Assembly (NCBI GenBank): GCA_037139415.1
Contig: JBAXGN010000027.1
Location: forward strand, 1-51,064
DNA from: Verrucomicrobiota bacterium
GTDB lineage: Bacteria > Verrucomicrobiota > Verrucomicrobiia > Limisphaerales > Fontisphaeraceae
DNA length: 51,064 nucleotides
Reading direction: 5' to 3'
Numbering within the stretch: position 1 is the stretch's first letter; each line of letters begins with the position of its first letter. The notes under the pieces are model-generated. The model saw only the letters and a program-made list of their open reading frames with translations. It searched no databases and had not been told where the DNA came from. A program made the position numbers and the translations under genes. Shown here in pieces: positions 3,588-33,573 of this stretch.

Positions 3588-3593
3588 ATTGCT

Positions 3594-3622: not shown

Positions 3623-3741
3623 GTACCATAATTTAAGCAAGTAACTAAACCCATATCTTCCCGGCCATCATTGCTCACGCAGCCAGCCTGATACAATGGT
3701 CAGTTATTCGTTGAACCTGCTCCCGGTCCTCGCCCGCGCAC

Positions 3742-8929: not shown

Positions 8930-11900
8930 TTAAGGCACCACAATGCGGAAGAATCCTTTCTGGCCAGTAAGCCATTTCGGATCAATCGCGATATTGGTGG
9001 AGGAACCGGTCATGACATTGGTGGCGATGCGGGTCCAGTTGGTCAAGGTCGTAGTGTTATCAATGTAGAACATCATGCCTGGCGAGCCGCTGAAACCTAA
9101 TTGCAGACCACCACTTCTGATGTTGCCACTACTGAGCAATGTTCGCAACACCGGCGGCAAGGATTTGACCAGCGTGAGAGTCGTCGCCACATTGTTATCC
9201 AATACCGGGTCATTCAGACTGCCAGAAACCACAATGGTATTGGTCGCCACACCGGCGAACGGCACTTGCACAACCAACAGCATCTGAGCACCACCGCCAA
9301 TCGCCAGATTACCCACGTTAGCAACCACTTGGCCGGCATTGACAGAAAAACTACCGGTCGTGAGGTTCGAGGATATCAGCACCGCACCAACCGGCAACGT
9401 ATTGGTGAGTTTAACGCCCGACGCGGCAGATGGTCCGTTATTGGTCACGGTAATGTAGTAAGTGAGGTTACTCGTCGCCACAACCGGGGCGGGACTACTA
9501 TACGCCTTGACCTCCAAATCGGCATTGGCGACAAGTTTTTGCTGATATTGGACGTTGATCGCCCAGCCTTTGGCCATCAGGCCGTCATCATATTGCATGT
9601 CGTCCTGCACATACAACAACCAGGTCCCATTCGGATCAGTGCCGTTAAAGACCGCCAGATTCGTGACCGCTCCAGACGGCGCAGGCGCGGCAAAACCGAT
9701 GGAACCATAGCTGGTAGGACGATAGGTGCCACCTGGCACGTAACCAGATTGAGGCAATGCTCCCGCCGCATCGTCAAAGGTCAGCGTTGCGTTCGTCAAC
9801 CCGGTAAGATTGCCAATGGTCTGTGACATCAGCACCGACCGCTGCCCTTGCGGACCCACGAGCATGATTTCCATGTCTCGCGGAGAGGTATGACTCAGAT
9901 TACTCAGCGTTACCGTCACCTTGGTGATAATACCTGAGATACCGGAAACGGAGATGGGCGACGGATATGGATTGGCGGGGCTTTGAGCGGTGCCAATGGC
10001 GGGGCTAGTGATGGTAATAGGATTGCTGTTTACGAACCGAACGGAACCCTCGCCGACAATGAAGGTGAACGTAACCGTACCGAAGTTCGTGGAACCATTG
10101 GTCAAACTCAGCGTGATTGGCAACAACGTCCCCTTGGCCGCCGTGACAGTAAAGGTAAACGGACGCGAGGCGGTGGCGAGGTAACCAAGTGTCCCATAGG
10201 CCTGCATCGTGTTAGTCGTACCGAGGCTTATCCCGTTGGTCGCCAAGAGGGTGGCTACTAAATTCGTCGCTGGCAGCCTGCCCAGATTGCGCAATGACAG
10301 GTTGAGCGTCACAGTTTCACCCGGATCAATCACCCCATTGGTGATCAGGTTCTCAGAAACCAGCGCGGCGCTCACGGGCACCAAGATGGGCACGTAATCA
10401 TCCAGAATCATGATACTTGCGCCGCCAGAACCGGACGCCACAGTCGTACCCGCCGAAGGCTGCGTCAGGTTGATCCCGAACGTCCGGTTGCCTTGGCTCA
10501 CCTTATTGTCAATAATTTGCAGATAGGCCACTTTCAAGGTTTCGCCGGCGGCGAAGAACACCGTCTGGTTGGTGCCCACGAAATGCACACCCGCCAAGGC
10601 GGTGCCATTGGTCGTCACGACATTCACGGAAGCCGGACCGTTGACACTGCCGGTACGTGTAATGGTTACCGGCAGTTGCCCGCCGCTTTCCCGCACCGTG
10701 TAATTGGTGGAATCCAGGGAAACCACGCTGTCATCATCCAGAATGGTAATCATCGAGTTGGCCTGGCTGCCAGGCATCGCCGAGCCGACGATCTTACTCA
10801 GACTTAAATTGATGGTTTTGTTGGCATTGGTGTAGCTGTTGTCAATGATGGGAACCGTGAAACTTTTAATGGTTTCGCCATAGTTAAAGACCAGCGTGCC
10901 ATTGACCGGGGTGTAATCGGTACCGCTATTGGCCGTGCCACCACCCGTACTATAGTCCACACTGACCGTACCGAACGTGCTGTTGCTGCGAATCACCGTA
11001 ACCGTCACTGACCCGCCACCCTCGAGTACGGAATAATTACTCTGGCTGAAGTTCAGGACAGCTTGGTTTTCCAGGATATACAAAACCGCATCCGACGGTG
11101 TGCCCAAAGTGGCCCCGCCGACCGGGTTGAACAGCCGCAAGAGCACCGTCTTGGTGGGATCCACGGCGGGATTATCCATGATGGGGATATAGAGGTCTTT
11201 GGACATTTCTTTGTTGGTGAACACCAGCGTGGCGCTACTCCCCACATAATCCACCCCATCCACCGCCGTGCCGCCCGGTATCGTGGCAAAATTCACGGAC
11301 ACCGTGCCGCTCCCTCCGTTGGTGCGCAAGACCGAGATCAGCGCATACGTGTATCCCTCCACCACATAATAGCCATTGGTGGTGAAAACAAAGGAACCCG
11401 GCATGACATCATCATCAATAATGGTCAATACAGCCGTACTGAGTGACGGATTCAAAGTTGCTCCGCCAGATGGGTTGGCAAGGGTCAAAACCACCGTCTT
11501 GTCTCCCGCCGCCATATTGTCATTCATTACTGGCACAGTGAAAGTCTTGACCGTTTCGCCGTCCGCAAACCGCAGGGTGCCATTGGTCATCTGATAATCC
11601 AACCCCACGGTAGCGTTGCCAGCCGCCACATTAATGCCGAAATCCACTGAAACATTACCCAGGCTGCCACCCAGACGTTGCACCGTAATGTTGGCGAATC
11701 CGCTATTTTCGTGAGTGCTGTAATTGGCGACACTAAAGCCAATGCTCCCCGGCCCCGGATTACGGTCCACAATCGTCAGTGTGGCATTGGATATACTTAA
11801 ACTGGCATTAGTTGGATTAAACAGACTCAAATTGATGGTACGATCCCCCGCAACCGGATTGTTGATCAATAAAATGTACACGGTCACATTGGTTTCTCCG

Positions 11901-14900
11901 GGCAGGAAGGTAATGGTACCGCTCACCGGCCAATAATCCTGCATGGCCACCGCCGAACCATCGGTGGTGGTAAAGTCCACCGTGGCGAGTCCAATGGAAC
12001 TGGCAGCGCGCACCACGTTAATCGTGGTAAAGGACGCGCCACTCGTCACACTATAAGTGGCCCGGTCAAATCCAATGACCCCCATGCTTTCAATAATCGT
12101 CAGCACCGCCGTGGACTGAGTCGCGAGTTGGGCACCACCGGTCGGATTGGCCAGGAACAGATTGATCGTCCGATTACTGGTTGACGTGTGATCATCCAGA
12201 ATGGGAACCGTAAAGGTTTTGATGGTTTCTCCATCCGCGAAGGTCAACGTGCCAGAAACAGCCAGATAATTGACACCCGCCACTGCGGTGCCGTTACTCA
12301 TTCCATAAGCCACGGTGGTTAGACCTGATACCCCCAACGTGCGCACCACGGTAATCGTGGCATTGGAGCCATTTTCGTTCACCACATAATTGGTGGCTGC
12401 AAACTCAAAGGCACCCGTCCCCAGATTGGTTCCACCATTCAAACGGGCCAAGTACGGAGCCGCCACCCGGTCAAAACTGGTGAAGCCACCGCCAATCAGC
12501 ACCTTCTGGTCGGGCTGCAAGGCCACCACATTGATATAATTATCGGCCCCCGTACCAACATTGTACGTCGTATCAATCGCGCCATTGGACATCAGGCGGG
12601 CCAGATTGTTCCGCGGATAACCATTGATTGCGGTAAACCCGCCACCCACCAAAATTTTGCCGTCCACTTGCAACGCAAGCGAGAGCACATATTCATTCGC
12701 GCCACTGCCCGGGTTGAAACTGGCATCTGATGAGCCATCCGCATTCAGCCGGGCGATACGCGCGCGACTGTTTCCCGACACACTCAGGAATAGTCCACCG
12801 AGCAGAATCTTGCCGTCCGGCTGCGCCAACACTACCCGCACGGAATCGTCAGCACCCGCCCCCGGATCAAACGAAGCATCCAAGCTGCCGTCCGGATACA
12901 GACGGGCAATCCGGTTACGAGCGACCCCGTTGACCAGCACGAAGTCACCACCAATAAGGATGCGTCCATCCGGCTGCACCTGGATCGCCCGCACCGCGCC
13001 AGCCGCTACACTGCCACTAATGTTGCAGGTAAACGTATTGTCTAGTGTGCCATCCGGATTCAACCGGGCCAGATAGTTTTGGGACTGGCCATTCACCGAC
13101 GCAAACAAACCACCAATTAGAATCTGGCCATCTGCTTGCAACGCCACTGCATTGACGACGCTATCGGGTCCGGTGACCGACGCCATGAAATTGGTATCCA
13201 GAGAGCCATTATTCAGCAGCCGCGCGAGATAATTACGCGACGTTCCACTGATATGAGTAAACGCACCACCGATCATTACGCGTCCATCCCCATACGTAGC
13301 CAACGCTCGCACTTGCCCACCCGGCCCATTCCCGCCACCCCCCGCTTGGAAGGTGGCATTAAGTGTTCCGTCCGGGAACAGCCGGGCCACCCGGTTCATC
13401 GGCTGCCCATTGACCATCGTGAAATCGCCCACAATGGTGATTTGATTGCCCACGCTCGGCATCACCGTCAACCGGTTGACCGGGCCGTCCAACGAAACTT
13501 GAAAGTTGTTGTCCACCGATCCTGCCGCTGGATCACCATCCAAAATGGTCAAGGTGGCATTCGTGATCAAGCCCGGCGTAGCATTGGTAAAGTTAGACAG
13601 CCGCAAATTGAGGTTTTTGCTCACGTCCGTCCCCGGCCGACTTATCAGCGGCACCAAGAAACCGTTCGAGGTTTGTCCATTGGTAAAGGTCAGCGTGCCA
13701 GATACCGCCAGATAATTCACCCCGTTGGTGGCCGTACCATCGGAAGTTGCATAATTCGCTGAAACTGTCCCCACCGTTCCATTGGTCCGCAACACGGCAA
13801 TCACCGCATTGATGTTTGTCTCCGTGGTCACATAATTGATGGCAGCAAACGTCACCTTGCCGATACCGGTGCTTTCATCATGCACGATCAGCCACGAATT
13901 GGACAAGGCCCCCAACAACGCTCCCCCTTGCACATTGGACAGTGTCAGGCCGACCGAGACATCGCCATCCACGGTGGGACTGTTGATTAACGGCACGAGG
14001 AAAGTTTTAACGGCCACATCGCCCGCCGCCCAGGAAACCACACCATTGGTTGGCCAGTAATTGCCCCCTGGCACAGCATTGCCATTGGTAGTCGTCGCAT
14101 AGTTGACGCTGACGGGCCCAACGCTTCCCTGAAAACGATTCACTGAGATGATGGCAAAGCCATTGGTTTCACTAAACAGGTTGGTCGTAGCGCCAAAGGC
14201 GATGGAACCTGGCGACAAATCAATATCCAAAATCGTCACCAGTGAAGTACTCGCACTCCGACTCAAGGAAGCGCCACCCGTGGCGTTGGAAAGCACCAAC
14301 TGTAACGTCACATTACCTTCCGGTATGTAGTTATGGATCACTTGGAATTGGATCGTTTTGGAAACCTCGCCATCCGCGAAGATGAGCAAGCCATTGGTCG
14401 GCACATAGTCTTGATTCGGCGTGGCCGAAAGCGACACCGTGCTGTAATTCACGGTGGCATTACCCAACGCTCCTGACCGGCGCAACACCGCCACACTCAC
14501 CGTGCCGGTCGCTTCGTCCACATTCATATTGGTATAGGCAAAACTAAACACGCCCGGGCCGATAGAGCGCTCGACCAGCGTCAACGTGGCATTCGAAATG
14601 CCCATGGTCGCATTAACCGGGTTTGACAAGGCCAATAACACTGTGAGATCTCCAGTGACGTTGGTATTATTGAGCAGGCGCACGTTCGCCACGGCATTGG
14701 CTTGCCCATTGGTAAACGTCACCACGATGTTAGTGGGCACATAGTCCACGCCAGCCGCCGCCGTGCCGCCCATGGTGCTAAAGAGCACCGAGGCCACTCC
14801 TTGATACCCGGCCTTGCGTTGAATTTGAATCGCCACGTTGGTGTTACCCTTGGTAATGCCGTACCCAGTCGTGGTAAATTCCACCAAACTGCGGTTCTCA

Positions 14901-17900
14901 ATGACCGTCAACACCGCGTTGGACTGAGCCTTCAATTCAGCACCCCCGGTGGGGCCATACAAGAATAAATTAACGGTATGGTCGCCATCCGGTAACCCGT
15001 CGTCCAGAACCGGTACCGTAAAGGTTTTAATCAATTCTCCTGAGGCAAAATTCAGCACCCCTGAAACCGGCGAATAATTGACCCCCGCCACCCCTGTGCC
15101 ATCACGCACCCCGTACGACACCGAGGCGGTTCCTGATACGCCGGTGAACCGCAACACCGTAATCGTCGCATTGGTGCCACCTTCGCCAATCGCGTAATTG
15201 GGCGAGGCGAAGCCAAAACCACCGGTCCCCACATTCGTGCCATTGTTCAGTTGCGCCAGATACGCCACCGGCGTTTGATTGAAATTGGTAAAGCCACCAC
15301 CAATCACGACTTTCAATCCGGGGGGCAACGCCACAGTGTTGATGTAGTTATCCGCACCCAAACCGATATTGAAACTCGGATCCACCGAGCCATTCGCCAT
15401 GAGCCTGGTCAACCGGCTGCGGGGAATCCCGTTGACGGTGACAAATGTGCCAGCCGCAAAAATCCGACCATCCGACTGCAGCGCCAGGGAAGCAACCGGT
15501 TGGTCCATCCCCAAACCCGGATCGAAGGAATAATCCAATGCGCCGGTCGCAGTTAACCGGGCAATCCGTGATCGGCTGACTCCATTGACATTCAAGAAAA
15601 GTCCACCCAGCAAAATACTGCTGTCCGGCTGAATAACGATGGTACGCACCGACCCATCAGCCCCGCTTCCCGTGTTAAAGTTGGCAACCAACGTTCCATC
15701 CCTGTTCAAACAGGCAATTCCACTGTTCGTGACATTATTGACGGTGGTAAAGTCACCACCAATAATAATCCGGCCATTGTTGTTATTATCCACCGCAATG
15801 ACATGAACAGTACCCGCAGCGCCATTGGCACCGATGAGCGGAGCAAAACTGGCATCCAAGGTTCCATCCGTATTCAACCGGGCCAAGTAATTGCGTGTTT
15901 GCCCATAGATCGTGGTAAAGGCGCCGCCGATCAGTATTTTACCATCCATTTGCAAGGCGATGGCATTCACAACGTTATCCAAGGCGTTGGTTGGGATAAA
16001 CGCGGCATCCACCAAACCGCTGGCCGTCAACTTGGCCAAATAGTATCTTGGCATACGCCCGACGACCGTCCTAATAGGCCCGACTACATTGGTTATCAAG
16101 CCGCCCATGTTCGTAAACGTTCCGCCGATAAGCACGCTCCCATCATCCAGAGCCGCCATCGCGCGTACTCCGCCATTGGGAGTGTTGGTGACACTAAAGG
16201 TGGTATCCACGTCCCCACTGTTTCGTGCAATCCGGGCGACCTTGGCGCTCGGCACTCCGTTGACGGTCGTAAACTCACCGGCGATGAGCAACTCAATATT
16301 CGTGGTAACGCCCGTGACGTTGGTGCTTACCAACACCACATTGATCGGACCGTCCACCGCAGCTTGGAAGTAACTATCCACTGAACCAGCAACGGAGCCG
16401 ACTTCCTGGATAACCAAGGTGGCGTTGCTCAGACCGACCAGGGTGGCGTTGGTCGGATTGGAGAGATGCAAATTCACCAATTTATCCAAATCCGTCCCGC
16501 TTGGGAATAACAATGGAACGGCAAAGGTATTGGAAACCTGACCGTTGGTGAGCACCAACGTACCGGAGACACTTTGATAATGCGTGCCGTTCAATGCCGA
16601 ACCATCTGTCGTAGCGTAATTCACCGAAACCGTCCCGAGATTACCGTTGGTACGCGTCACCGTAATGACGGCGTTACTAGCACTTTTGAGAGCGGAGAAC
16701 TGTGCTTTTGCAAAAGACAGCATCCCCGGTCCATTGCTTTCATCGTGAACCACCAGGGTGGCGTTGGAATATAGCCCAAGCGAGGCACCGCCCGTCGGCA
16801 ATGCAATCTGCAACCAGACGGTTTTGTCACCTTCGACGAGGTTGTTGCTAATGACCTGCACCTGGAAGCTTTTCACGGCAACTTCGCCATTCGTCCAATG
16901 CAACAGACCATTCGTCGGCCAGTAATTACTTCCTACAATGGCGCTTCCGTTCGTGCCCGTCGAATAAGCCACCGAGATATTGCCCAAATTGCCAAACTGC
17001 CGTTTCACCGTGATCGTGGCAAATCCATTGGTGTTGGTTTCGCTTACCGTATAACTCGGGGCATCGAAGGTCAAACTACCATTGATGAGATCGCTTTGGA
17101 TAATGGTCAGTTTGGCTTGATCATCACCCAAGGCTATTCCCGTCGGGCCGGTGGGATTCTTCAAGCGCAGGCTGACCGTTGTGTTCGTGCCCATCTGATA
17201 GTTCTGTTTAATGGGAATATTAAATGATTTCACCGTTTCACCGTCCCCAAAGGCCAGCGTGCCGCTTACGGGCGTATAGTCCAAACCAACGGCGGCGGTG
17301 CCTCCCTCGGTACTAAAATCCACGGTGGCAAAACCGCTGCTGCCGTTGGTGCGAATCACATACACCGTAGTGTTGGTCTCGTACTGAAACACACTGAGTT
17401 GATTCGTGGCAAAATTAAATGTCCCAGGGGCGGTATCCACATCCACAATGGTCAACTGGGCCGTGGCTTGTCCGAAAAACACCGTCGTGCCCGGCGTGGA
17501 ACTCAGGCTTAACGTGACGGTCCGGTTGCCAGTCACCCCATAATTACGGATTATTTTCACCAAAAACAGCGCATTCGTCTGCCCAGGGGCAAACGCCACC
17601 GCACGGTTGGTGCTCAGATAGTCGAGCCCTGAAGTGGCAGTTCCGTTGGTCGTGAACGCCTGCACCTGCACGTCCGTATTGGTTCCGCTCATTCGCCAAA
17701 TCGGGATGACCGCGTAACCGCTGACGTCATTTTCGTTGACGGTATAGACCGGACTCGAAAAACCAATCACCGCGTGATCATCCACAATTACCAGGTTGGC
17801 GCTGCTCTGCAAGTCAAGCGCACCACCACCCGGCACGTTGGTGGACAACTGTAAAGTCAAGGCCTTGGTGGGTGCCGGAACGTTGTGACTGATGAGTAAC

Positions 17901-20900
17901 ACCGTAAAGGTTTGCAAGGTTTCGCCCTGCGGGAAAACCAGCACGCCATTGGTGTCGATATAATCCACATTGGAGACGGCCGGAGTATAATTGGCGAACA
18001 CGTTCGTCAAGGTTGAAAAGCCCATCGCGACGGTATTCGAGGTGCCACCATTGCGCCTAACCGTAATCACTGCGTTCGTCTGGCTTTCGTAGAAAGTGAA
18101 CTCAGGTTTCAGAAACTCCAACTGTCCGGAACCAAGGTTCTGATAACCGATCAAACGGGCCAAGTAATTGCGATGCGACTCATTGAAGGAGGTAAAGCCA
18201 CCGCCAATAATGATCTGATCATCGGTTTGATTGGCCACTGCGGCGATGAAGGCATTGGCACCGGTCCCAAAATTGATGGTGGGATCGGTGGTTCCATCAT
18301 CAAAAAGCCGGGTGATACGGTTGCGGCTGACATTATTAAACCGGGTAAAATCTCCCGTGACCACCACTTTGCCATCGGATTGCAGCGAAATCGCAAACAC
18401 CGCGCCATTGGCGCCAATCTCCGCTGCGGTGGGCAGGAAGCTCGTATCCAACGTGCCATCCGAATTCAACCGGGCCAGATTGTTGCGTCGGACCCCATTG
18501 ACCGAAGTAAACAAGCCACCGATGATAATGCGTCCATTGTAATCAATATCGAGAGCATAAATCGTCCCATCAGTGCCAACCCCGCCAGCATTAAACGAAG
18601 TATCCAGCGACCCATCGTCATTCAAGCGCGCCACATGCCCCACCGGTTGGTTCTTATAGTACGTGAAATCACCGGCGATCAACAACTTGCCATCCGGCTG
18701 AAACGCCAAGGCCCGAACCACCGCATTGGGCCCCTGCCCATCCGCGTTGAAAAGCAACCGCACTGATCCATTGGTATTTAGCACCGCGACCGCCGGACGG
18801 GTGAACCCTCTGAAGTTCACAAACGACCCGCCCACGGCAATCCGACCATCCTTCCAGACATCCAACGCATAAACTGGATTATCAGCGCCGGCACCAGGGT
18901 CGAAGCTCGGGTCCATGCGACCATCCGCGTTGAGGCGGACAATCCGGTTACGGTTGGTGGAAGCAAACGTGGTGAAACGTCCACCGAGCAGAATGCGGCC
19001 ATCCGTCTGGACGGCAATGGCCTGCACGGAATCATTGGCACCATCCAGCGGGTCAAACGTGCCATCCAACACCCCGTTGACCGCCATGCGCGCAATCCGG
19101 CTGCGCCCGATGCCATTGACGCTCGTGAAACTGCCGCCCACGAGTATCTTGCCGTCGTTTTGCAGCGTGATAGCCTGCACATATCCATCCATTCCGGGAT
19201 CGGGATTGAAAGAGGTGTCTACGCTGCCAGCCGGCACATTTTGCGACTCCGCATCCACGATCAACACGCTGGCATTCGTAATATCCCCCAGCGTGGCGTT
19301 GGTCAGATTAAGCATCAGCACACTGAGGGTCTTGTTGCCATCCACCGAATTGGTGTACAGGATGGGGAGGTAGAAGGTCTTGACCGAGGTATCCCCCTGG
19401 GTCCACACCAGATTGGTGAACACCGGCAGAAAGTTCACGCCCGGAATTGCGCTGAACGGTTGATAGTCAGTAAACGGCGCAATCGTCACCGCTACGTTGC
19501 TATAACTCCCGCCTGATCGGACCACATCAATGCCCAGTGACACCTGTTTTTCATTCACCGCATACCTCGGACGGCTGAACGAAAGCTGACCATATCGGTC
19601 GGTATCCTTGATCAGCAAGGTCGTATTGTTTTGGAATCCCAAGTAAGAACCACCTCCCGGGGCTGACAGGAACAAGGTCAGGGTTCGATCTCCCTGAATA
19701 CCCAGGCGATTCGAGATGACGATGCTGATATTGGTGTTCACCGTCACGCCGTTCGAGAACCACAATACCCCACTGGCCAAGGGGTTCAAATAATCCAACC
19801 CTTGTTGGGCTGGATTCAGCCCGGTACCAATCATGGCATAGGCCACCGATACCAACCCGGTGGCACCGCCCGTACGCATTACCGGAATCGTGAGCGCGCC
19901 ATCCGATTCCAACGCTTGGAACGAATCGCTGACAAAACTCAAACTACCAGGGGAATTATCATTATCAACGATCACCAAGGTGGCATTGGTACGACCGAGA
20001 CCCGCCCCGCCGGAAGCGCCAAACAGACTCAACTTCAACGTATGCTCAGGTTGCTTGATCAGATTATCAATAATCCGAACGCTGAAGAATTGGGTCGTTA
20101 CGTTAGGGCTGAAGGTTAACTTGTAGGGGGAGGCCCAAGTATAATTCCACTGATAATCCACCCCATTGGTGGCAGTACCGCTGGTCGCCATGACGTTCAC
20201 ATCCACCCGTTTATCGGCCCCGTTGGTGCGCACCACCATGATGCTGGCATAGTTGGTGCCTTCATTCACATAATACACCGGATTGGCAAACGTAATGGTA
20301 CCCGGCAACGCATCATCATCCAAAATCGTCACCCGCGACGTGGAGCGGAAACCCAAGGCTGGATTGGGAATACCGGAGGAGACGTAACCAGCCGTACCAG
20401 GGGGAATAGCGGTTAGCTGAAGGATCGGTGCCGTACTTGGATCAGGCCAATACCAAGCGGGCTGGCCCAAAACAATTTCAAATTCACGATTCCCATCCCG
20501 ATTGGTGTTATTGAGGATGGGAATTTGAATTTCCTGAATATCATTGGCGCTGATCGGCCAAGTAACCGTGGTGGCGAATTGGACGTAATCCCGTCCTGCG
20601 ATACCACTGCTATCGCGTGTATAAACCGGCACTTGCGCCGTGCCCAAGCGTCCGTTAATACGATGTAAAGTGATTGTCACATACGCAGCGTTTTCCATGA
20701 CGGAATAGGCGTCGTCCACAAGTTCAATATTACCCGGCGCGTTGGTTTGCCCGCCACCCACCAGCATGTCCCCACCAATAATCCGGGTAAAATTCCGATT
20801 GGTGTGCATGCTGTTGACGTCATTCAGCAGATTGGTATTATACGTATTCGGACCACCTTCGACCGGGGCGTAGCCGACAATGGTGGCACCCCCACCACCG

Positions 20901-23629
20901 AAATCAAAACGTCCGCCGACCATCAAATGACCATTGGTTTGCAAGCTTAACGCATTGACATATCCTGGTACGATATTGTTGTTATCATCCAGATAATAGA
21001 GGCCGGGTAGCCACTGGTTATAGTACGTGTCCAGGAACGTGGTGTCCAAGGTGCCATCGTTGAATAACCGCGCAATATTCGTGCGCCCAGTGCCGTTATA
21101 GAACCGGAAATCGCCCGCAATGATCGCCTGGCCGTTGTTTTGCACAACCATGGCATACACCGATCCATCCACGCCCTGTCCGGGATCAAAGGCCGGATCC
21201 ACATTCCCATAATTGTCCAACCGCGCAATGCTGCGGCGGGGCGTCACTCCCATGGAGGCGAAATTCCCGGCGACGAGGATTTGTCCGGGCGACGGAACCT
21301 TGATGGCATACACGGGACCATCGGCGCCTTTGCCCGGAGTAAATAATGTATCCACCGTGCCATTGCCATTCAAACGCGCAACCCCGGGCCGGGAATACGT
21401 GCCGACATTCAAGAATTCGCCACCCAGCAACACCTTTTTAGACCCGCCAGCCGTCACAATGGTCGCCGAAAAATCCCAGACCGTAAACGGATCACCGCCA
21501 CCCTCGTTCATCACAAAATCAAGGGACGTTGAACTTCCCGGCCCGTAGGGGATGACGACATGGTTGGTGCCACCAACCAGACCGCTATCATAAATAAGAG
21601 TCCCGTCGTAATAGATGTGGATCGTATCCGGGACAGTATAAAAATCATAATCCAGAGTGATGGTGCCGGAACTGGCGCCCGTGTTAAGGTTCGTGCGCCA
21701 TTCCATTGGACCCGCCCCTGATTGGCTGCCGTTCAGCAGGATGGGCACGGTGTCTTCCTGCGCCACGGTCCATACCGGACCATCCGCGCCGCTGCCGGGA
21801 TCAAAAGTCTCATCCAGACTGCCATCGGCTTTCAAACGGGCCACGCCATTACGTGAAAAATTATTGAATAAACTAAAATCACCGCCGATGACAGCGGTGT
21901 CGTTATTCATAATCGTAATCGAATGGACTGCGGCGCGCCGGTTCGGATCGCCGTATATATTGCCCTGAATACCGTTCCCGGGCGCGAATGTGGTATCCAA
22001 CGAGCCGTCTTTATTTAGGCGCGCAATGCCATTACGAGGAACGCCGTTGATGGAGGAGAATTCGCCACCGACCAGGATTTTCCCGGCATTATTTGTCGAA
22101 GTGGTGGGATAAATCGCGAGGGCATACACGTTGCCATCCGCGCCCGATCCGGCAGCAAAGGTTGTATCCAACGTGCCATCCACCAACAAGCGGGAGATGC
22201 CATTAATCGGACTGGAATTGACGTTTTGAAATTCGCCGCCAATCACCGTCCTTCCCTGATCGTCCACCGCCACCGCGCAGACCGGTTGATCCGCGCCGGG
22301 CTGGTTCTGGTTCAACCGCCGGTCGAACGGATTATAGCGGCGATCAAACGCCCCGGCCGGCTGATCGTCAAAATGAATGGTGAACAAAAACTCGCCCCAC
22401 GCGCCATAGACGCCCGGCGCCCTGACCGTACCGTACGTACGCACGCCCACCACATCAGCGGGCTGGCCCGGCTTCGGACCGGTGTCATAAATCAAAATTT
22501 CCGCCACTTTATCCAGTTCCACAAACCGATCATTGTTAATCGGAATTGGGATGTTGATATACCTGACATTAGCGCCAAAGTTCAAAATCCCATCGGCTAA
22601 TTGATAATCCGCGTCGCCGATGGTATTCTGCGCATTCGTCAATCCAGGCTTGTGATAATTCAAACAATCATACGTGATCGTTGTGTAATACGCGTCATAG
22701 CCGCCCGCCATATCCCCCATGCGCTCCACCGCCACGTTTACGGTGCCGGCATCTTCCTCGACCCGGGTGAAATTGGTCCAATTCCAGTTGATATTACCGC
22801 CAATCACGTTGGGTCCCGTTGCAAACCGGAACCAAGCGGCTCCGAGCGGCACATAATCCGCCAGCGTCACCACCACACTCGCGGCCGCCGGATCAATCCG
22901 GCTACCGGCATCAGGAGTGGTTAATGCCAGCGTAAACGTCCGATTCCCAGTCGCGGCACTCCAAAAGATGGGAATTGAAATCGTGTAGTTGGAACAGCCT
23001 GGCTTCCACACGAACATGTTGGTGGTGAAACGCCAGTTCAGGCTCCAGTTGGGGCCCGGCGGCGTCGCCGTTACTGTAACCGAATTCGTCGCGTTCAGGT
23101 TGCCGGTTCGGGACAGCCGGAAGAGCACGTACTGTTCCTGCTCGGAAACCGAAACCGTTCCGGCCCCATTCACTTGGGCCATGCCATTGGGATCCCCCAT
23201 CAAGCGCCAAACCACATCGGTGTCGGTGATATTAACCCACGCCACATTACTTTGCACGGTCAGGATGCCGTTGATAACATTGGTCAGAAAGAATTTTAGA
23301 ATCATGGTTCCCTGGTCGCGCGCGTTGTAAATCGTGCTCAGGGGGATGGTCCACGTGTTGTTACTGGCAAAGGTGTAAGTCAGCCCGCCGGCAGGCGGCC
23401 AGCTCGAAACCTGATTGAGGCCGTTGGCCGTGAGCTGCTGCACGCCCAGCGTTACGCTGGCGTTGGTCACGTATTGACACATCACCACCAAGGCGTTCGA
23501 GCTGCCCTCGACGATGGTGATATTGGTTTGGGCAAATTGGATGGTGGGCTTCACCTGCCCAGTGGCGAGGAAAGGGACACCCCACAGGGCCAGCAGCACC
23601 CCAAGGCGGCACAAAGTTTTTACAAACAT
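8930..23629 (-). CDS. Giant secreted protein: four 7-repeat delta-60 propellers alternating with Calx-beta domains
   Basis: About 4,899 residues. Order: signal peptide (VKTLCRLGVLLALWGVPFLA); three Calx-beta-like domains; delta-60 block 1 (nt about 22360-20870); four Calx-beta; block 2 (19230-18140); five Calx-beta; block 3 (16385-15250); five Calx-beta; block 4 (13515-12440); six Calx-beta; a spacer; a proprotein-convertase P-like domain (about 10040-9545); a DUF11-type domain (9530-9160, with VTNNGPSAASGVKLTNTLP); and a short C-terminal module ending FFRIVVP. Every delta-60 block has seven copies of the (L/I)-x-G-G-x-F core, which fits a seven-bladed propeller (PF17164). Calx-beta domains bind Ca2+ in adhesins. 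No anchor, LPXTG or membrane helix is seen at the C-terminus. An in-frame ATG 54 bp upstream (23683) would add a non-signal-like, AT-rich extension. Likely an extracellular matrix or adhesin protein; function is inferred. It is last in a four-gene run. Confidence 0.85.
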   Translation of the reverse strand: MFVKTLCRLGVLLALWGVPFLATGQVKPTIQFAQTNITIVEGSSNALVVMCQYVTNASVTLGVQQLTANGLNQVSSWPPAGGLTYTFASNNTWTIPLSTIYNARDQGTMILKFFLTNVINGILTVQSNVAWVNITDTDVVWRLMGDPNGMAQVNGAGTVSVSEQEQYVLFRLSRTGNLNATNSVTVTATPPGPNWSLNWRFTTNMFVWKPGCSNYTISIPIFWSAATGNRTFTLALTTPDAGSRIDPAAASVVVTLADYVPLGAAWFRFATGPNVIGGNINWNWTNFTRVEEDAGTVNVAVERMGDMAGGYDAYYTTITYDCLNYHKPGLTNAQNTIGDADYQLADGILNFGANVRYINIPIPINNDRFVELDKVAEILIYDTGPKPGQPADVVGVRTYGTVRAPGVYGAWGEFLFTIHFDDQPAGAFDRRYNPFDRRLNQNQPGADQPVCAVAVDDQGRTVIGGEFQNVNSSPINGISRLLVDGTLDTTFAAGSGADGNVYALAIYPTTSTNNAGKILVGGEFSSINGVPRNGIARLNKDGSLDTTFAPGNGIQGNIYGDPNRRAAVHSITIMNNDTAVIGGDFSLFNNFSRNGVARLKADGSLDETFDPGSGADGPVWTVAQEDTVPILLNGSQSGAGPMEWRTNLNTGASSGTITLDYDFYTVPDTIHIYYDGTLIYDSGLVGGTNHVVIPYGPGSSTSLDFVMNEGGGDPFTVWDFSATIVTAGGSKKVLLGGEFLNVGTYSRPGVARLNGNGTVDTLFTPGKGADGPVYAIKVPSPGQILVAGNFASMGVTPRRSIARLDNYGNVDPAFDPGQGVDGSVYAMVVQNNGQAIIAGDFRFYNGTGRTNIARLFNDGTLDTTFLDTYYNQWLPGLYYLDDNNNIVPGYVNALSLQTNGHLMVGGRFDFGGGGATIVGYAPVEGGPNTYNTNLLNDVNSMHTNRNFTRIIGGDMLVGGGQTNAPGNIELVDDAYSVMENAAYVTITLHRINGRLGTAQVPVYTRDSSGIAGRDYVQFATTVTWPISANDIQEIQIPILNNTNRDGNREFEIVLGQPAWYWPDPSTAPILQLTAIPPGTAGYVSSGIPNPALGFRSTSRVTILDDDALPGTITFANPVYYVNEGTNYASIMVVRTNGADKRVDVNVMATSGTATNGVDYQWNYTWASPYKLTFSPNVTTQFFSVRIIDNLIKQPEHTLKLSLFGASGGAGLGRTNATLVIVDNDNSPGSLSFVSDSFQALESDGALTIPVMRTGGATGLVSVAYAMIGTGLNPAQQGLDYLNPLASGVLWFSNGVTVNTNISIVISNRLGIQGDRTLTLFLSAPGGGSYLGFQNNTTLLIKDTDRYGQLSFSRPRYAVNEKQVSLGIDVVRSGGSYSNVAVTIAPFTDYQPFSAIPGVNFLPVFTNLVWTQGDTSVKTFYLPILYTNSVDGNKTLSVLMLNLTNATLGDITNASVLIVDAESQNVPAGSVDTSFNPDPGMDGYVQAITLQNDGKILVGGSFTSVNGIGRSRIARMAVNGVLDGTFDPLDGANDSVQAIAVQTDGRILLGGRFTTFASTNRNRIVRLNADGRMDPSFDPGAGADNPVYALDVWKDGRIAVGGSFVNFRGFTRPAVAVLNTNGSVRLLFNADGQGPNAVVRALAFQPDGKLLIAGDFTYYKNQPVGHVARLNDDGSLDTSFNAGGVGTDGTIYALDIDYNGRIIIGGLFTSVNGVRRNNLARLNSDGTLDTSFLPTAAEIGANGAVFAISLQSDGKVVVTGDFTRFNNVSRNRITRLFDDGTTDPTINFGTGANAFIAAVANQTDDQIIIGGGFTSFNESHRNYLARLIGYQNLGSGQLEFLKPEFTFYESQTNAVITVRRNGGTSNTVAMGFSTLTNVFANYTPAVSNVDYIDTNGVLVFPQGETLQTFTVLLISHNVPAPTKALTLQLSTNVPGGGALDLQSSANLVIVDDHAVIGFSSPVYTVNENDVSGYAVIPIWRMSGTNTDVQVQAFTTNGTATSGLDYLSTNRAVAFAPGQTNALFLVKIIRNYGVTGNRTVTLSLSSTPGTTVFFGQATAQLTIVDVDTAPGTFNFATNQLSVFQYETNTTVYVIRTNGSSGFATVDFSTEGGTAAVGLDYTPVSGTLAFGDGETVKSFNIPIKQNYQMGTNTTVSLRLKNPTGPTGIALGDDQAKLTIIQSDLINGSLTFDAPSYTVSETNTNGFATITVKRQFGNLGNISVAYSTGTNGSAIVGSNYWPTNGLLHWTNGEVAVKSFQVQVISNNLVEGDKTVWLQIALPTGGASLGLYSNATLVVHDESNGPGMLSFAKAQFSALKSASNAVITVTRTNGNLGTVSVNYATTDGSALNGTHYQSVSGTLVLTNGQVSNTFAVPLLFPSGTDLDKLVNLHLSNPTNATLVGLSNATLVIQEVGSVAGSVDSYFQAAVDGPINVVLVSTNVTGVTTNIELLIAGEFTTVNGVPSAKVARIARNSGDVDTTFSVTNTPNGGVRAMAALDDGSVLIGGTFTNMGGLITNVVGPIRTVVGRMPRYYLAKLTASGLVDAAFIPTNALDNVVNAIALQMDGKILIGGAFTTIYGQTRNYLARLNTDGTLDASFAPLIGANGAAGTVHVIAVDNNNNGRIIIGGDFTTVNNVTNSGIACLNRDGTLVANFNTGSGADGSVRTIVIQPDSSILLGGLFLNVNGVSRSRIARLTATGALDYSFDPGLGMDQPVASLALQSDGRIFAAGTFVTVNGIPRSRLTRLMANGSVDPSFNIGLGADNYINTVALPPGLKVVIGGGFTNFNQTPVAYLAQLNNGTNVGTGGFGFASPNYAIGEGGTNATITVLRFTGVSGTASVSYGVRDGTGVAGVNYSPVSGVLNFASGELIKTFTVPVLDDGLPDGDHTVNLFLYGPTGGAELKAQSNAVLTVIENRSLVEFTTTGYGITKGNTNVAIQIQRKAGYQGVASVLFSTMGGTAAAGVDYVPTNIVVTFTNGQANAVANVRLLNNTNVTGDLTVLLALSNPVNATMGISNATLTLVERSIGPGVFSFAYTNMNVDEATGTVSVAVLRRSGALGNATVNYSTVSLSATPNQDYVPTNGLLIFADGEVSKTIQFQVIHNYIPEGNVTLQLVLSNATGGASLSRSASTSLVTILDIDLSPGSIAFGATTNLFSETNGFAIISVNRFQGSVGPVSVNYATTTNGNAVPGGNYWPTNGVVSWAAGDVAVKTFLVPLINSPTVDGDVSVGLTLSNVQGGALLGALSNSWLIVHDESTGIGKVTFAAINYVTTETNINAVIAVLRTNGTVGTVSANYATSDGTATNGVNYLAVSGTLTFTNGQTSNGFLVPLISRPGTDVSKNLNLRLSNFTNATPGLITNATLTILDGDPAAGSVDNNFQVSLDGPVNRLTVMPSVGNQITIVGDFTMVNGQPMNRVARLFPDGTLNATFQAGGGGNGPGGQVRALATYGDGRVMIGGAFTHISGTSRNYLARLLNNGSLDTNFMASVTGPDSVVNAVALQADGQILIGGLFASVNGQSQNYLARLNPDGTLDNTFTCNISGSVAAGAVRAIQVQPDGRILIGGDFVLVNGVARNRIARLYPDGSLDASFDPGAGADDSVRVVLAQPDGKILLGGLFLSVSGNSRARIARLNADGSSDASFNPGSGANEYVLSLALQVDGKILVGGGFTAINGYPRNNLARLMSNGAIDTTYNVGTGADNYINVVALQPDQKVLIGGGFTSFDRVAAPYLARLNGGTNLGTGAFEFAATNYVVNENGSNATITVVRTLGVSGLTTVAYGMSNGTAVAGVNYLAVSGTLTFADGETIKTFTVPILDDHTSTSNRTINLFLANPTGGAQLATQSTAVLTIIESMGVIGFDRATYSVTSGASFTTINVVRAASSIGLATVDFTTTDGSAVAMQDYWPVSGTITFLPGETNVTVYILLINNPVAGDRTINLSLFNPTNASLSISNATLTIVDRNPGPGSIGFSVANYSTHENSGFANITVQRLGGSLGNVSVDFGINVAAGNATVGLDYQMTNGTLRFADGETVKTFTVPVMNDNMAAGDKTVVLTLANPSGGATLNPSLSTAVLTIIDDDVMPGSFVFTTNGYYVVEGYTYALISVLRTNGGSGTVSVNFATIPGGTAVDGVDYVGSSATLVFTNKEMSKDLYIPIMDNPAVDPTKTVLLRLFNPVGGATLGTPSDAVLYILENQAVLNFSQSNYSVLEGGGSVTVTVIRSNSTFGTVSVDYSTGGGTANSGTDYTPVNGTLVFNYGETIKSFTVPIIDNSYTNANKTINLSLSKIVGSAMPGSQANSMITILDDDSVVSLDSTNYTVRESGGQLPVTITRTGSVNGPASVNVVTTNGTALAGVHFVGTNQTVFFAAGETLKVAYLQIIDNKVSQGNRTFGINLTQPSAGTTVASGSGGASIMILDDYVPILVPVSAALVSENLITNGVIDPGETVTLNLSLRNLGRLPATNLVATLLATNGISLGTTNTMQAYGTLGYLATASRPFTFTVTAAKGTLLPITLSLTNGSTNFGTVTFTFIVGEGSVRFVNSNPITITSPAIGTAQSPANPYPSPISVSGISGIITKVTVTLSNLSHTSPRDMEIMLVGPQGQRSVLMSQTIGNLTGLTNATLTFDDAAGALPQSGYVPGGTYRPTSYGSIGFAAPAPSGAVTNLAVFNGTDPNGTWLLYVQDDMQYDDGLMAKGWAINVQYQQKLVANADLEVKAYSSPAPVVATSNLTYYITVTNNGPSAASGVKLTNTLPVGAVLISSNLTTGSFSVNAGQVVANVGNLAIGGGAQMLLVVQVPFAGVATNTIVVSGSLNDPVLDNNVATTLTLVKSLPPVLRTLLSSGNIRSGGLQLGFSGSPGMMFYIDNTTTLTNWTRIATNVMTGSSTNIAIDPKWLTGQKGFFRIVVP

Positions 23630-23703
23630 AAACTTGTTTAAAACATTACACATAACAATTCGAGGCATACGCACACGGTTCATTCTCAGCCAAAGCCATC
23701 CAT

Positions 23704-26682
23704 TTATGGCAATGGCGCCACCACGTTGATTTGATAATACCGGGGCGGCGTGTGGACCGCATCCACCACCGATTGCCGCCCGCTAACTGTGGCCGTGAAA
23801 TTGGTCAAGGCCGGCCAAGTGCCAGTCGTCAAGTTAGTGGTATATAACACCTGACAGACCGCGTTGGAAGCGGCGGTCCATGAAAGCGTCACCGTGGTCC
23901 CACTATAAACGATGTTGCGCTGAATGTCCCACGGGTCTTTGCCGGCTTGCAACTCCAGAAAATTGGGAATCCCGTTGCCGTTGGAATCAAAATACGGATC
24001 GGTGGCCACGTAATAATTTCGCAACGTGCCGAAGATGTTCGTACCACTAGCCGGACCCGCGTACGCCGAAGCCCACTTCAGCCGTCCGCCCAGTTTTCCA
24101 TTGAGCTTGGTCGGCGGCACATTGGCCGTGGCAAAATAGATGGTCAGGTTTGGATCAATGGCCAAGTTGGCCAGCGCGCCAGGCGTCATCCAATTTGTGG
24201 CACCATTGACAAATTCGAGGTTATCCACATAAAGCGCGTTGCGGACGTTCAGCCCGCGGAACGTGAACCGTCCCCGCAGCCCGCCGTCGAGCACCAAATG
24301 CCCCAGCGCAACGTTGTTGGAATATCCCGCTGCCGTATTGCCACGGTCTTGGCCCGCCCAGATATGGACCGCCTCCGAATCCTGCCTGGCTTGGGTGAGA
24401 ATCTTTGTCCCCAACAAATCCCCGAGCACCGGCTTGACGTACATGCGGAAGCCATCCGAGCACTGCCATGAATTATTCGCGGCTGGCCCGGTATCCGATA
24501 ACTGATTGGTAACACTGAATACCAAGGCCCCTCTCAGTCCTTGGCCCGCCTGCACCGTGGAATTATACAACTGCCAGACGCGACCGCGATATTGAATATC
24601 CGAGCTGGCCCACAACAGGCCGCCGGTAAACAACGCATTTTGAGCGTTGAAATCAATCGTCCCCGCCGCCGCCGTCCAGTTGCCGGAGTTGAAAAGGTTG
24701 CTGGCATAGACCAGATGGGTACCCCCAATAATCGTGCCACGATTAATCAAATCCAGATACGGCACAGTCACTTGGTTGGTGAGCAAGCCACGGTTGACGG
24801 TGGGCCGCCGGGCCGCCAACTGCAGGAAGGCGCTGTTCGTATTGGTCATGACCTGGGAATAGAAAAAGGCGGTCGTATTGGTGGAGAGCAGAATGTTTCC
24901 CTCGTTGGTCAAGTGGAACAAGCGTGGAAAATTGGTCGGAGCCCAACTCAATTGGGTGGGCAGCGTCAGCGAGGCGTTCACCGGCAGATTGCTGGAAAAG
25001 CGCAGGCCATCCGCATCCAGCAACAAAGAGGTATTCACATTCAACGTGTCATGAATATCAATATTCTTCGCATGAAGCTTCAGTCGGTCGATCTTGATTT
25101 GCTGGTTCAGAAGCATGCTGACATCCACAATCAACACATGAATCATTTCATTGGTGGCGACGGCAGGTGCGATCATCGAGGCGTTGGTCCAGACGGTGCT
25201 ATACATCCAAACCTGACCTGCCAAGCGGCTAATGGAGGGCCGCACGAAATTGGAAACCAGCAACAACGAATTGGTCGTAGTGATGTCAAAATTTATGACC
25301 GGCGCATCCATGTCCGGCAATACGTTACTCACCAAATTGGTGGTGGTTAGGCTGATAAACTGCTCCGCGCGCATACGGGTCTGGTTGGCATTGAGCTGGT
25401 CGGCGACGATTTCAATGCGCCCGGGGGAATTGCTCACGTTCGATCCAATCGTACCCGTATCACCGATCAAGGCTGAATACGCATTATAGGTGGTATTTAT
25501 CACATTTGAGGCACCGCGCGGAAACAGAATGCGACTATCAAAATTCGCGCCGGACAACGCGGCATCCGCCGGATCAAAGAAATCAAAGACTTGGCCATAG
25601 TAATAGGTGGCATCAGTAAGTTCAAATGCCTGCGGCCGGCGGGTGGTGCCCTGCCAATTGCGATAGGTCGCAGAATTGGTCATGACGGTGGAATGGTCCA
25701 TCAAAAAGAGCGAATTGGTCACTACGCGTTGCAGTACATTATCATAATTGGTAACGCCAATGCGCACAATTGGCATGGTTCCACCGACACCCCCAGCCAG
25801 ATAATCCTGGGCAAAACGGACATCCACCACCAACTCCGGCGGTAAATTCGTGGGCAAATAGACCACATGCGTGACCGGTTGGTCCCCCACCCCGAGATAA
25901 TTCTGATATACGTAGGCCGTGTAACCACCATAGTTTACGGCCGGTACCGTGGCCCAAAGGGGAATGCCACGGTTACTGTAGAGCACTTGATGCTGGGGAG
26001 ACATGGTGTACGGCGTATCGAAATTATTAATGATGGCCTGCCCCAAGCGCAACTGTCGGGCGGCGTTGGTGATTTGCGCGTTGTTGGTACCGGACGCCCA
26101 GTAATAGTCCGTCACGCCGTTCACGTTGAAGTAGCTTCGAACATAATCCATATTCAGTCCGTCCCCGCCACTTGTGATTGCGGCGGCGGGGTTAAGCCCG
26201 GCACGCAGTCCGCTGAAACTCAAATCCACATTCTTCCCGAGCAACTGCAACATTCCCGCCTGGCCGACACTCAGGATGCCACGGTTCACCACATTCGTGG
26301 CATTGATAAAAAAATGGGTCGAACTATAAATATCCCCGCGATTGACCACCCAACTCGCCGGCAACCGCACATTATTGAGGGCTTTGGGATTATACGGCTT
26401 GTACATGAAATTAAAACCAGGATAGCCAAACATGAGGCCGCTGGCCTCATTGGTATAAAAGCGCGTGTTTTGCGTCTCGTACACCAAGCTGTCGCTGACA
26501 CTGAACAGCGCCTGGTTCACAAACACGGTGGCGTCCACCTGCGGCGGCACGGTCGCACCGATGCCGACCGTGGTGTCCAGGTTCGCTTGGTTCACATAAA
26601 TGGCCGCCGGCTGATACTTGGTTGCCGCCACCAGCGAAACCGTCGCTGTCATCGTCCAGAGCCAGGAGAGAATGCGTTTCAT
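23704..26682 (-). CDS. Large secreted protein of unknown function with shared C-terminal module
   Basis: 992 residues, starting with a signal peptide (MKRILSWLWTMTATVSLVAA). The body has no family I can name. It is rich in Asn, Thr and Val and contains many short beta-strand-like phrases of the form VNRGxxxxG and LxNxGxxxxx (for example SWVVNRGDIYSS, NVVNRGILSVG, LINRGTIIGG, LFNSGNWTAAAG), which suggests a beta-helix or similar repeat fold. Near the C-terminus DSNGNGIPNFLELQAGKDP is a thrombospondin-type-3-like Ca2+ loop. It is followed by a final module of about 75 residues (VCQVLYTTNLTTGTWPAL, ending YYQINVV) that resembles the ends of two neighbouring proteins. It lies 36 bp after the 471-residue gene and 74 bp before the giant gene, so it is probably co-transcribed with both. 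Confidence 0.7.
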   Translation of the reverse strand: MKRILSWLWTMTATVSLVAATKYQPAAIYVNQANLDTTVGIGATVPPQVDATVFVNQALFSVSDSLVYETQNTRFYTNEASGLMFGYPGFNFMYKPYNPKALNNVRLPASWVVNRGDIYSSTHFFINATNVVNRGILSVGQAGMLQLLGKNVDLSFSGLRAGLNPAAAITSGGDGLNMDYVRSYFNVNGVTDYYWASGTNNAQITNAARQLRLGQAIINNFDTPYTMSPQHQVLYSNRGIPLWATVPAVNYGGYTAYVYQNYLGVGDQPVTHVVYLPTNLPPELVVDVRFAQDYLAGGVGGTMPIVRIGVTNYDNVLQRVVTNSLFLMDHSTVMTNSATYRNWQGTTRRPQAFELTDATYYYGQVFDFFDPADAALSGANFDSRILFPRGASNVINTTYNAYSALIGDTGTIGSNVSNSPGRIEIVADQLNANQTRMRAEQFISLTTTNLVSNVLPDMDAPVINFDITTTNSLLLVSNFVRPSISRLAGQVWMYSTVWTNASMIAPAVATNEMIHVLIVDVSMLLNQQIKIDRLKLHAKNIDIHDTLNVNTSLLLDADGLRFSSNLPVNASLTLPTQLSWAPTNFPRLFHLTNEGNILLSTNTTAFFYSQVMTNTNSAFLQLAARRPTVNRGLLTNQVTVPYLDLINRGTIIGGTHLVYASNLFNSGNWTAAAGTIDFNAQNALFTGGLLWASSDIQYRGRVWQLYNSTVQAGQGLRGALVFSVTNQLSDTGPAANNSWQCSDGFRMYVKPVLGDLLGTKILTQARQDSEAVHIWAGQDRGNTAAGYSNNVALGHLVLDGGLRGRFTFRGLNVRNALYVDNLEFVNGATNWMTPGALANLAIDPNLTIYFATANVPPTKLNGKLGGRLKWASAYAGPASGTNIFGTLRNYYVATDPYFDSNGNGIPNFLELQAGKDPWDIQRNIVYSGTTVTLSWTAASNAVCQVLYTTNLTTGTWPALTNFTATVSGRQSVVDAVHTPPRYYQINVVAPLP

Positions 26683-29691: not shown

Positions 29692-29703
29692 ATTGTTCAA
29701 GCC

Positions 29704-30670: not shown

Positions 30671-30676
30671 GGGAGG

Positions 30677-30711: not shown

Positions 30712-30728
30712 TGAATAAGATTTCCCGT

Positions 30729-33533: not shown

Positions 33534-33573
33534 TTTTCCTTCATCCACTGACATAAAACAAAAATCGGCCGCG

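What the first reader, a model, noticed from the sequence alone, without database searches (positions are those of the whole stretch)
8930..23629. Giant protein with four blocks of exactly seven delta-60 repeats
Counting the (L/I/V)-x-G-G-x-F cores gives seven in each of the four delta-60 blocks (nt about 22360-20870, 19230-18140, 16385-15250, 13515-12440). Seven is a standard blade number, so I predict four complete seven-bladed propellers strung between runs of three to six Calx-beta-like domains. A single chain of about 4,900 residues with this alternation is unusual and could be a long extracellular fibre or adhesin.
Basis: partly seen in the sequence, partly recalled or inferred. Interest (0 to 1): 0.75.

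Follow-up and report, generated by a model that had tools for sequence, protein, structure and literature searches.

The report
Giant four-propeller surface protein, secretin-linked
This is a real protein of about 4,900 residues, apparently exported, with four predicted seven-bladed ring domains spaced by rod-like domains; it belongs to a family found beside a pilus-like secretion locus in a group of environmental bacteria, and its most likely role, not yet tested, is a long surface fibre that grips polysaccharides or other cells.

Summary
AlphaFold models of block 4 (pLDDT 93) and of the irregular block 1 (pLDDT 83) match whole WD40 propellers (Z about 28-31). Seven is the usual count of this repeat: of 167 complete blocks in 78 loci, 127 have 7 and 19 have 14. 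In a sample chosen with the single-repeat profile, 15 of 26 have 7 and 1 has 14. Blocks 3 and 4 are a duplication, so they are not independent. The chain is not unique: one relative has a 5,587-codon frame, another an open frame of 7,180 codons. New here: the gene ends a locus of Amuc_1098-1101-like secretin/PilM genes plus three exported-looking proteins, one of them (P0003) order-restricted. Three proteins of the locus share a C-terminal domain absent from Pfam and NCBIfam, with 35 matches in this genome; 20 of 20 checked lie at the very C-terminus. Most likely function, inferred: a secreted adhesive fibre.

The parts
8930..23683 (-). Giant gene, 4,917 aa (alternative start 23629, 4,899 aa); N-terminal segment looks like a signal peptide
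22868..23155 (-). N-terminal Calx-beta domain (aa 177-272); weak Calx-like stretches lie on either side (aa 48-154 and 307-397)
20753..22360 (-). Block 1: seven delta-60 blades (aa about 442-977); blade 7 degenerate; predicted ring
21440..21754 (-). About 105-aa insert (aa about 644-748) between the first two strands of blade 4 of block 1; a related insert lies between units 3 and 4 in L045, L081, L094, L104, L117 (in L041 between counted units 4 and 5)
19253..20728 (-). Run of 4 Calx-beta domains
18137..19231 (-). Block 2: seven delta-60 blades, begins with the half-blade GSVDTSF
16403..18121 (-). Run of 5 Calx-beta domains
15236..16387 (-). Block 3: seven delta-60 blades
13538..15217 (-). 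Run of 5 Calx-beta domains
12428..13528 (-). Block 4: seven delta-60 blades (aa about 3386-3752), predicted ring
10400..12409 (-). Run of 6 Calx-beta domains
9575..9922 (-). Proprotein-convertase P-domain (PF01483)
9179..9520 (-). DUF11 domain (PF01345)
8933..9127 (-). C-terminal about 65-aa domain shared with the products of 23704-26682 and 28144-29700
23704..26682 (-). P0002, 992 aa, no Pfam or NCBIfam match, exported by its look; directly upstream of the giant gene
26719..28134 (-). P0003, 471 aa, no family match, exported by its look, order-restricted
28144..29700 (-). P0004, 518 aa, exported by its look; weak match to a beta-propeller repeat model (TIGR04275, 26.1 bits, cut-off 85)
30729..33554 (-). 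Secretin; best NCBIfam model Amuc_1098 family (350.7 bits, cut-off 750)
33574..34368 (-). Protein in the Amuc_1099 position, no family match
34372..35433 (-). Amuc_1100-family-like protein (51.5 bits, cut-off 180)
35438..37270 (-). PilM; NCBIfam Amuc_1101 family (471.5 bits, cut-off 650) and TIGR01175 pilM (136.6, cut-off 133)

Best explanation
The protein is an exported, elongated surface fibre: four closed seven-bladed delta-60 propellers as heads or nodes, spaced by rods of 4-6 Calx-beta domains, with a P-domain/DUF11 region and a C-terminal domain shared within the locus at the end. SHOWN: the domain order, seven units per block, predicted rings for two blocks, and linkage to a PilM/Amuc_1100-like/secretin locus. 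INFERRED: it passes the inner membrane by Sec, is handed to the outer membrane with the help of the linked secretin complex and the three companion proteins, the Calx-beta rods stiffen it (perhaps with Ca2+), and the propeller faces bind polysaccharide or partner cells so that the cell sticks to particles.
For: Domains. Rings: models with pLDDT 93.1/pTM 0.85 and 82.7/0.76, matching RACK1- and PRL1-type WD40 chains (seven-bladed, as recalled) at Z 27.9-31.1 over 279-318 residues in the 50 rows shown of each search. Usual count: 127 of 167 blocks have 7 and 19 have 14; in 15 loci that I picked for non-verrucomicrobial titles, 19 blocks are 7 (8), 14 (10) or 8 (1). Locus: in 15 upstream regions, chosen from the better P0003 matches, secretin and P0004 are in 15 of 15 and PilM in 12, the other 3 being cut short. 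P0003 lies 6.2-10.8 kb downstream of PilM on the same strand in 55 of 55 genomes with both best hits on one contig, out of 78 with both. Precedent: BapP, N-terminal five-bladed propeller plus Calx-beta repeats, whose deletion impairs biofilm formation and whose action depends on Ca2+ (PMC12153261, passages read). The Akkermansia MUL2 locus (amuc_1099-1102) is proposed to mediate attachment (PMC13174399, first of two parts read).
Against: No binding, localisation or secretion data. Structure prediction may favour closing repeat proteins into rings; blocks 2 and 3 were not modelled. Acidic positions that could bind Ca2+ are only partly kept: the 7 most acidic columns hold D/E in 9 to 19 of the 20-21 domains. 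The giant is not obligatory to the locus: of 20 P0003-chosen loci, 3 have a delta-60 protein right after P0002 and 2 more one gene further on (one of these scoring weakly), several loci being cut by contig ends; others carry an M36 peptidase or another large protein there. No T2SSE ATPase or T2SSF match lies on the window contig, and no pilin was recognised in the proteins scanned.
Confidence: 0.55

Rival explanations
1. The giant is not an adhesin but a scaffold of the secretin locus: a stalk or outer-surface lattice protein that holds the companion exported proteins or hydrolases at the cell surface.
For: It is encoded at the end of the same locus and shares its C-terminal domain with two other proteins of the locus. 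The slot after P0002 can instead hold an M36 peptidase (L044, L052) or a nine-DUF11 protein (L040), as expected of interchangeable surface cargo.
Against: Many loci with P0002 show no giant nearby (15 of 33, some cut short); four propellers and 21 clear Calx-beta domains are more than a simple tether needs.
Confidence: 0.25
2. Ordinary neutral expansion: a repeat-rich exported protein whose size drifts by duplication, with no special role for four propellers.
For: Blocks 3 and 4, with Calx-beta domains on either side, are a segmental duplication of about 950 aa: the aligned-blade score is reached by 0.0002 of permutations, and the paired flanking Calx domains are 50, 55 and 62% identical. Relatives have 2, 3 or 4 blocks.
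Against: The usual ring size of seven is kept through this change and in records of several phyla, so the blocks are under fold constraint.
Confidence: 0.15
3. The delta-60 blocks are open solenoids or rings of another size, the number seven being shared ancestry only.
For: Some blocks have other counts (5, 6, 10, 24); two 6-unit blocks in this genome look genuine by eye (L153, L155); prediction bias is possible.
Against: Both models match whole propellers including the half-blade at the start; counts peak at 7 and 14, with none of 10-12 among the 167.
Confidence: 0.05

Closest known systems
Delta-60 repeat (TIGR02608) / DUF5122 beta-propeller (PF17164)
   Same: Repeats match both families; Pfam's description already says beta-propeller, and PMC8078820 modelled it on template 2ymu (passages read).
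   Different: Neither text that I saw gives a blade number; here 7 and 14 are shown as the usual counts, with a half-blade at the start and, in some relatives, an insert domain in one blade.
BapP of Pseudoalteromonas tunicata (PMC12153261, passages read)
   Same: Exported protein with a predicted propeller plus Calx-beta-type repeats; Ca2+-dependent adhesin.
   Different: BapP has one five-bladed propeller, 12 sandwiches and a neighbouring putative type 1 secretion system; here four seven-bladed rings alternate with the rods, beside a secretin/PilM locus.
Akkermansia MUL2 / Amuc_1098-1101 pilus-like locus (PMC13174399; NCBIfam Amuc_1098, 1100, 1101 families)
   Same: Homologous PilM, Amuc_1100-like protein and secretin in one gene neighbourhood.
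   Different: All three score below the equivalog cut-offs; no Amuc_1102 pilin was recognised nearby; three further exported-looking proteins and the giant are added.
2ymu, 'highly repetitive propeller structure' (PDB)
   Same: Among the best fold matches of block 1 (Z 30.3); that it is a 14-blade WD40 protein forming two rings is recalled.
   Different: WD40-type repeats (recalled); no Calx-beta domains in the entry title.

Membership tests
Delta-60 / DUF5122 repeat | Profile matches above curated cut-off | tested here: met
   PF17164 812 bits (cut-off 27); TIGR02608 411 bits (cut-off 76.5)
Seven-bladed beta-propeller | Seven blades per block | tested here: met
   seven units per block by own profile (Pfam alone 6/7/5/7); seven strand sets in the model of block 4
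Seven-bladed beta-propeller | Ring closes | tested here: met
   predicted models of blocks 1 and 4 match whole propeller chains; blocks 2 and 3 only by alignment
Calx-beta domain | PF03160 match above cut-off and fold | tested here: met
   938.6 bits, 19 stretches; Foldseek to Calx CBD1 with TM (target) up to 0.95
Calx-beta domain | Ca2+ binding | tested here: inconclusive
   acidic columns only partly kept
Akkermansia MUL2 locus | Amuc_1098, 1100 and 1101 equivalogs | tested here: not met
   homologous but 350.7/750, 51.5/180 and 471.5/650 bits
Akkermansia MUL2 locus | Amuc_1102 (MUL2A) pilin next to PilM | tested here: inconclusive
   no match in the window proteins scanned; ORFs under 150 aa not scanned
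Bap/RTX adhesins (BapP kind) | Type 1 secretion genes adjacent | tested here: not met
   none among the adjacent genes; 20 window proteins besides the giant were scanned, not every ORF
Bap/RTX adhesins (BapP kind) | Adhesion phenotype | not testable with these tools
   needs a cultured relative

The most novel reading that the evidence does not exclude
The locus is an undescribed protein secretion/display system of this verrucomicrobial order: a MUL2-like secretin/PilM core plus three exported proteins (at least one order-restricted), which recognises a new about 65-aa C-terminal sorting domain (typically ending in F-[FY]-R-L) on dozens of exported proteins, the four-propeller giant being its flagship cargo.
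Probability: 0.15. Interest if true: 0.85.

Novelty: new variant of a known kind. Interest (0 to 1): 0.5.

Why it matters
It turns an uncharacterised repeat family into a clear structural tendency (rings of seven, often doubled to fourteen). It also ties giant propeller/Calx-beta proteins to a pilus-like secretin locus related to the one Akkermansia uses on mucin. If the linkage is functional, it suggests how a group of mostly uncultured Verrucomicrobiota attach to polysaccharides, and it offers a candidate C-terminal sorting domain that can be tested directly.

Tried and rejected
Counting by the literal motif was rejected as too strict (18 of 28). 'Four independent sevens' was rejected: blocks 3 and 4 are positional paralogues, while for the other pairs the matched blades are not clearly better than permuted ones (fractions 1-2 0.47, 1-3 0.57, 1-4 0.20, 2-4 0.14, 2-3 0.045). 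'A unique giant' was rejected. Foldseek's E-ranked list of the block 4 model is led by Calx-beta entries (50 rows shown), so the propeller was judged from VIA-align. The viral library gave a phage protein named delta-60 repeat and other repeat proteins, a side note only. PDB sequence search of the Amuc_1100-like protein gave nothing at E <= 1. tRNA and Rfam (gathering) searches of the window were empty. The first 'propeller' paper search was swamped by engineering papers (15 of 14,670 listed) and supports no claim.

Census limits: loci L060-L137 were found with a three-block, seven-unit query and are capped at the best 80 of at least 514, and the counting profile was iterated on the same loci, so the peak at 7 could be inflated. 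The check sample was chosen with the single-unit PF17164 profile (11 of the 12 genomes with a match; the twelfth, G052, was in the first set; one added stretch, L177, has no block) and counted with the same iterated profile: 26 strong complete blocks, 15 with 7, 1 with 14, 4 with 6, 2 with 5, 1 with 10, 1 with 24, 2 with 27; four of its loci are from this genome. Before counting I dropped 30 truncated and 6 weak blocks (mean under 25 bits), and 2 truncated and 9 weak. Blocks interrupted by inserts were joined if no Calx-beta domain lay between. Some odd counts have wide gaps with degenerate blades by eye, but the 6s in L153 and L155 look genuine. By title: 52 verrucomicrobial-titled loci, 113 blocks, 90 with 7 and 8 with 14; 15 loci picked for other phyla, 19 blocks, 8 with 7, 10 with 14, 1 with 8; 9 further loci titled Proteobacteria (WB4/WB5 isolates), which I set apart because their proteins have the verrucomicrobial architecture, 23 blocks, 18 with 7, 1 with 14, 2 with 15, 1 with 6, 1 with 8; 2 loci titled only 'bacterium', 4 blocks, all 7; the 20 P0003-chosen loci, 8 blocks, 7 with 7 and 1 with 8.

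The signal-peptide score is crude: it passes 17 of 20 C-terminal-domain proteins, but also two likely cytosolic window genes, and it fails P0002 and P0004, which read like signal peptides by eye.

Full report
THE OBSERVATION. The window holds one open frame from 23683 down to 8930 on the minus strand, 4,917 aa. Pfam finds Calx-beta (PF03160, E 1.4e-288), DUF5122 beta-propeller (PF17164, E 2.1e-251), DUF11 and a P-domain above their cut-offs; NCBIfam finds the delta-60 repeat. A profile built from 25 of the protein's own units recovers 28 units in four groups of seven. So seven per block is right, but not by the literal motif. Calx-beta counts are 1 clear plus 2 weak at the N-terminus, then 4, 5, 5 and 6.

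RING CLOSURE. Each of blocks 2-4 begins with a half-unit (GSVDxxF) and ends with a unit lacking that half, the arrangement expected if the first strand completes the last blade. Block 4 with one Calx-beta domain on each side was modelled from 49 sequences: pLDDT 93.1, pTM 0.85. Its residues 115 to about 481 align with whole WD40 chains such as RACK1 and PRL1 (seven-bladed, as recalled) at Z 28.8-29.8 in the 50 rows shown, rmsd mostly 2.2-2.8 A, 9-16% identity. Block 1 was chosen as the hard case: its blade 4 holds an insert of about 105 aa and its blade 7 is degenerate. It was modelled from 29 sequences (pLDDT 82.7, pTM 0.76) and also matches whole propellers at Z 27.9-31.1. Blocks 2 and 3 were not modelled.

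SEVEN AS THE USUAL COUNT. In 98 loci (20 chosen by the neighbour protein P0003, 78 from one capped genome-collection scan with three window blocks) I counted 173 complete blocks, of which 167 have a mean unit score of 25 bits or more: 127 with 7, 19 with 14, 7 with 8, 5 with 13, 3 with 15, 2 with 6, and one each with 5, 9, 27 and 29; 30 truncated blocks were dropped. The 167 blocks lie in 78 of the 98 loci, and 146 of 167 are exact multiples of seven. In 15 loci that I picked because their titles name other phyla (Bacteroidota, Planctomycetota, Acidobacteriota, Actinomycetota, Cyanobacteria, Proteobacteria, Omnitrophota), the 19 blocks are 8 of 7, 10 of 14 and 1 of 8; the cyanobacterial one gave no complete block. 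Nine further loci titled Proteobacteria but with the verrucomicrobial architecture were set apart: 23 blocks, 18 of 7, 1 of 14 and 4 others. Because the query had seven units, a second sample was drawn with the single-unit profile: of 26 strong blocks, 15 are 7, 1 is 14, and 10 are other values. Several of those have wide gaps that hold degenerate blades by eye, but two 6s, both in this genome, look real (L153, L155).

EVOLUTION. Blade-by-blade comparison shows blocks 3 and 4 to be copies in register (0.0002 of blade permutations score as well). Calx-beta 4 and 5 before each, and Calx-beta 1 after each, are also paired (50, 55 and 62% identity), so a segment of about 950 aa was duplicated. Block 1 resembles the first block of relatives with the order C1-d7-C3-d7-C6, including the enlarged last blade. 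The insert in its blade 4 recurs between units 3 and 4 in L045, L081, L094, L104 and L117, in L041 between counted units 4 and 5, and similar inserts sit at other blades in L061, L065, L079, L085 and L114.

CONTEXT. Upstream on the same strand lie PilM (NCBIfam Amuc_1101 family, 471.5 bits, cut-off 650), an Amuc_1100-like protein (51.5/180), a protein in the Amuc_1099 position, a secretin (Amuc_1098 family, 350.7/750), a 5'-3' exonuclease, and P0004, P0003 and P0002, which begin like exported proteins. In 15 upstream regions from relatives, taken from the better P0003 matches, secretin and P0004 are present in 15 and PilM in 12, the other three being cut short. P0003 occurs in 82 of 97 genomes of the relatives sample, this genome included, all marked as same family or order. 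In a class-wide sample it occurs in all 8 order members and, weakly, in 1 of 49 others; P0002 and P0004 were not tested that way. PilM and P0003 are both found in 78 genomes; in 55 of these the best hits share a contig, always same strand, P0003 6.2-10.8 kb downstream. Of 33 loci with a P0002 match, 16 have a delta-60 protein within 1.4 kb downstream and 2 more have one gene between. But 13 of the 16 were chosen for having delta-60 repeats, so the fairer figure is 3 adjacent plus 2 near (one weak) of the 20 P0003-chosen loci, several of them cut by contig ends. Other occupants of the slot include M36 peptidases and a nine-DUF11 protein (7 proteins scanned). Of the 13 named loci with this gene order, 11 are titled Verrucomicrobia subdivision 3, Pedosphaera or Limisphaerales, one Verrucomicrobiales and one only 'bacterium', so the window's order is probably Limisphaerales (inference). 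The genome has 11 T2SSE and 18 T2SSF matches, none on the window contig.

C-TERMINAL DOMAIN. The giant, P0002 and P0004 end in a related stretch of about 65 aa. A profile of 14 such ends has 35 matches in this genome, 3 of them in the window. Of 20 of the 32 others examined, all 20 end within 4 residues of the stop codon. The 14 members match no Pfam or NCBIfam family significantly. At E <= 1e-7 it is found in 5 of 39 genomes of a class sample: 4 of 5 order members and 1 of 34 others. Most carriers look exported (17 of 20 by a crude score).

MECHANISM. Shown: domain order, counts, predicted rings, linkage. Inferred: export, surface location, Ca2+ stiffening, glycan or cell binding. BapP (one predicted five-bladed propeller plus Calx-beta repeats) is an experimentally tested Ca2+-dependent adhesin (PMC12153261, passages read). 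The Akkermansia MUL2 locus is proposed to mediate attachment (PMC13174399, first of two parts read). These are works-like arguments, not membership.

NOVELTY. In the held library only one paper names DUF5122 or PF17164 (19 papers listed for four terms, the others unrelated by title): PMC8078820, which modelled the family on 2ymu and in which the word 'blade' does not occur (passages read). I found no description of the C-terminal domain in the two family libraries; one literature search listed 10 of 832 papers, none with such a title, so absence from print is not established. I judge the protein a new variant of a known kind: a giant propeller/Calx-beta surface protein in a genomic setting that I did not find described.

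Noticed in passing
8933-9127, 23707-23901, 28147-28341 and 32 further places in the genome: A C-terminal domain of about 65 aa (typically L-x-W, then Y-x-L-[EQ], W, ending F-[FY]-R-L) shared by exported-looking proteins, without a Pfam or NCBIfam family; 20 of 20 checked end within 4 residues of the stop. A candidate sorting signal.
   Followed up: partly
21440-21754; L041, L045, L081, L094, L104, L117; also L061, L065, L079, L085, L114: A recurrent beta-sandwich-like insert inside delta-60 blocks, in five relatives between units 3 and 4 as in the window, in others at other blades.
   Followed up: partly
L120:2-21541: A frame of 7,180 codons, open at both ends, in a record titled Opitutaceae, with delta-60 blocks of 13-14.
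   Followed up: no
G000:C124, C166, C60, C120 (L153-L156): Other delta-60 proteins of the same genome, with blocks of 6, 7+7, 6 and 7; the two 6s look genuine by eye.
   Followed up: partly
28144-29700: P0004 reads like another beta-propeller type (TIGR04275, weak), and is present in 15 of 15 upstream regions examined.
   Followed up: no
29765-30826: A 5'-3' exonuclease frame sits inside the secretin locus and overlaps the end of the secretin frame; no match to it was found in 7 of 15 relatives' regions.
   Followed up: no
G004:C37 and G004:C2: One genome carries two PilM-P0003 pairs, each on one contig.
   Followed up: no
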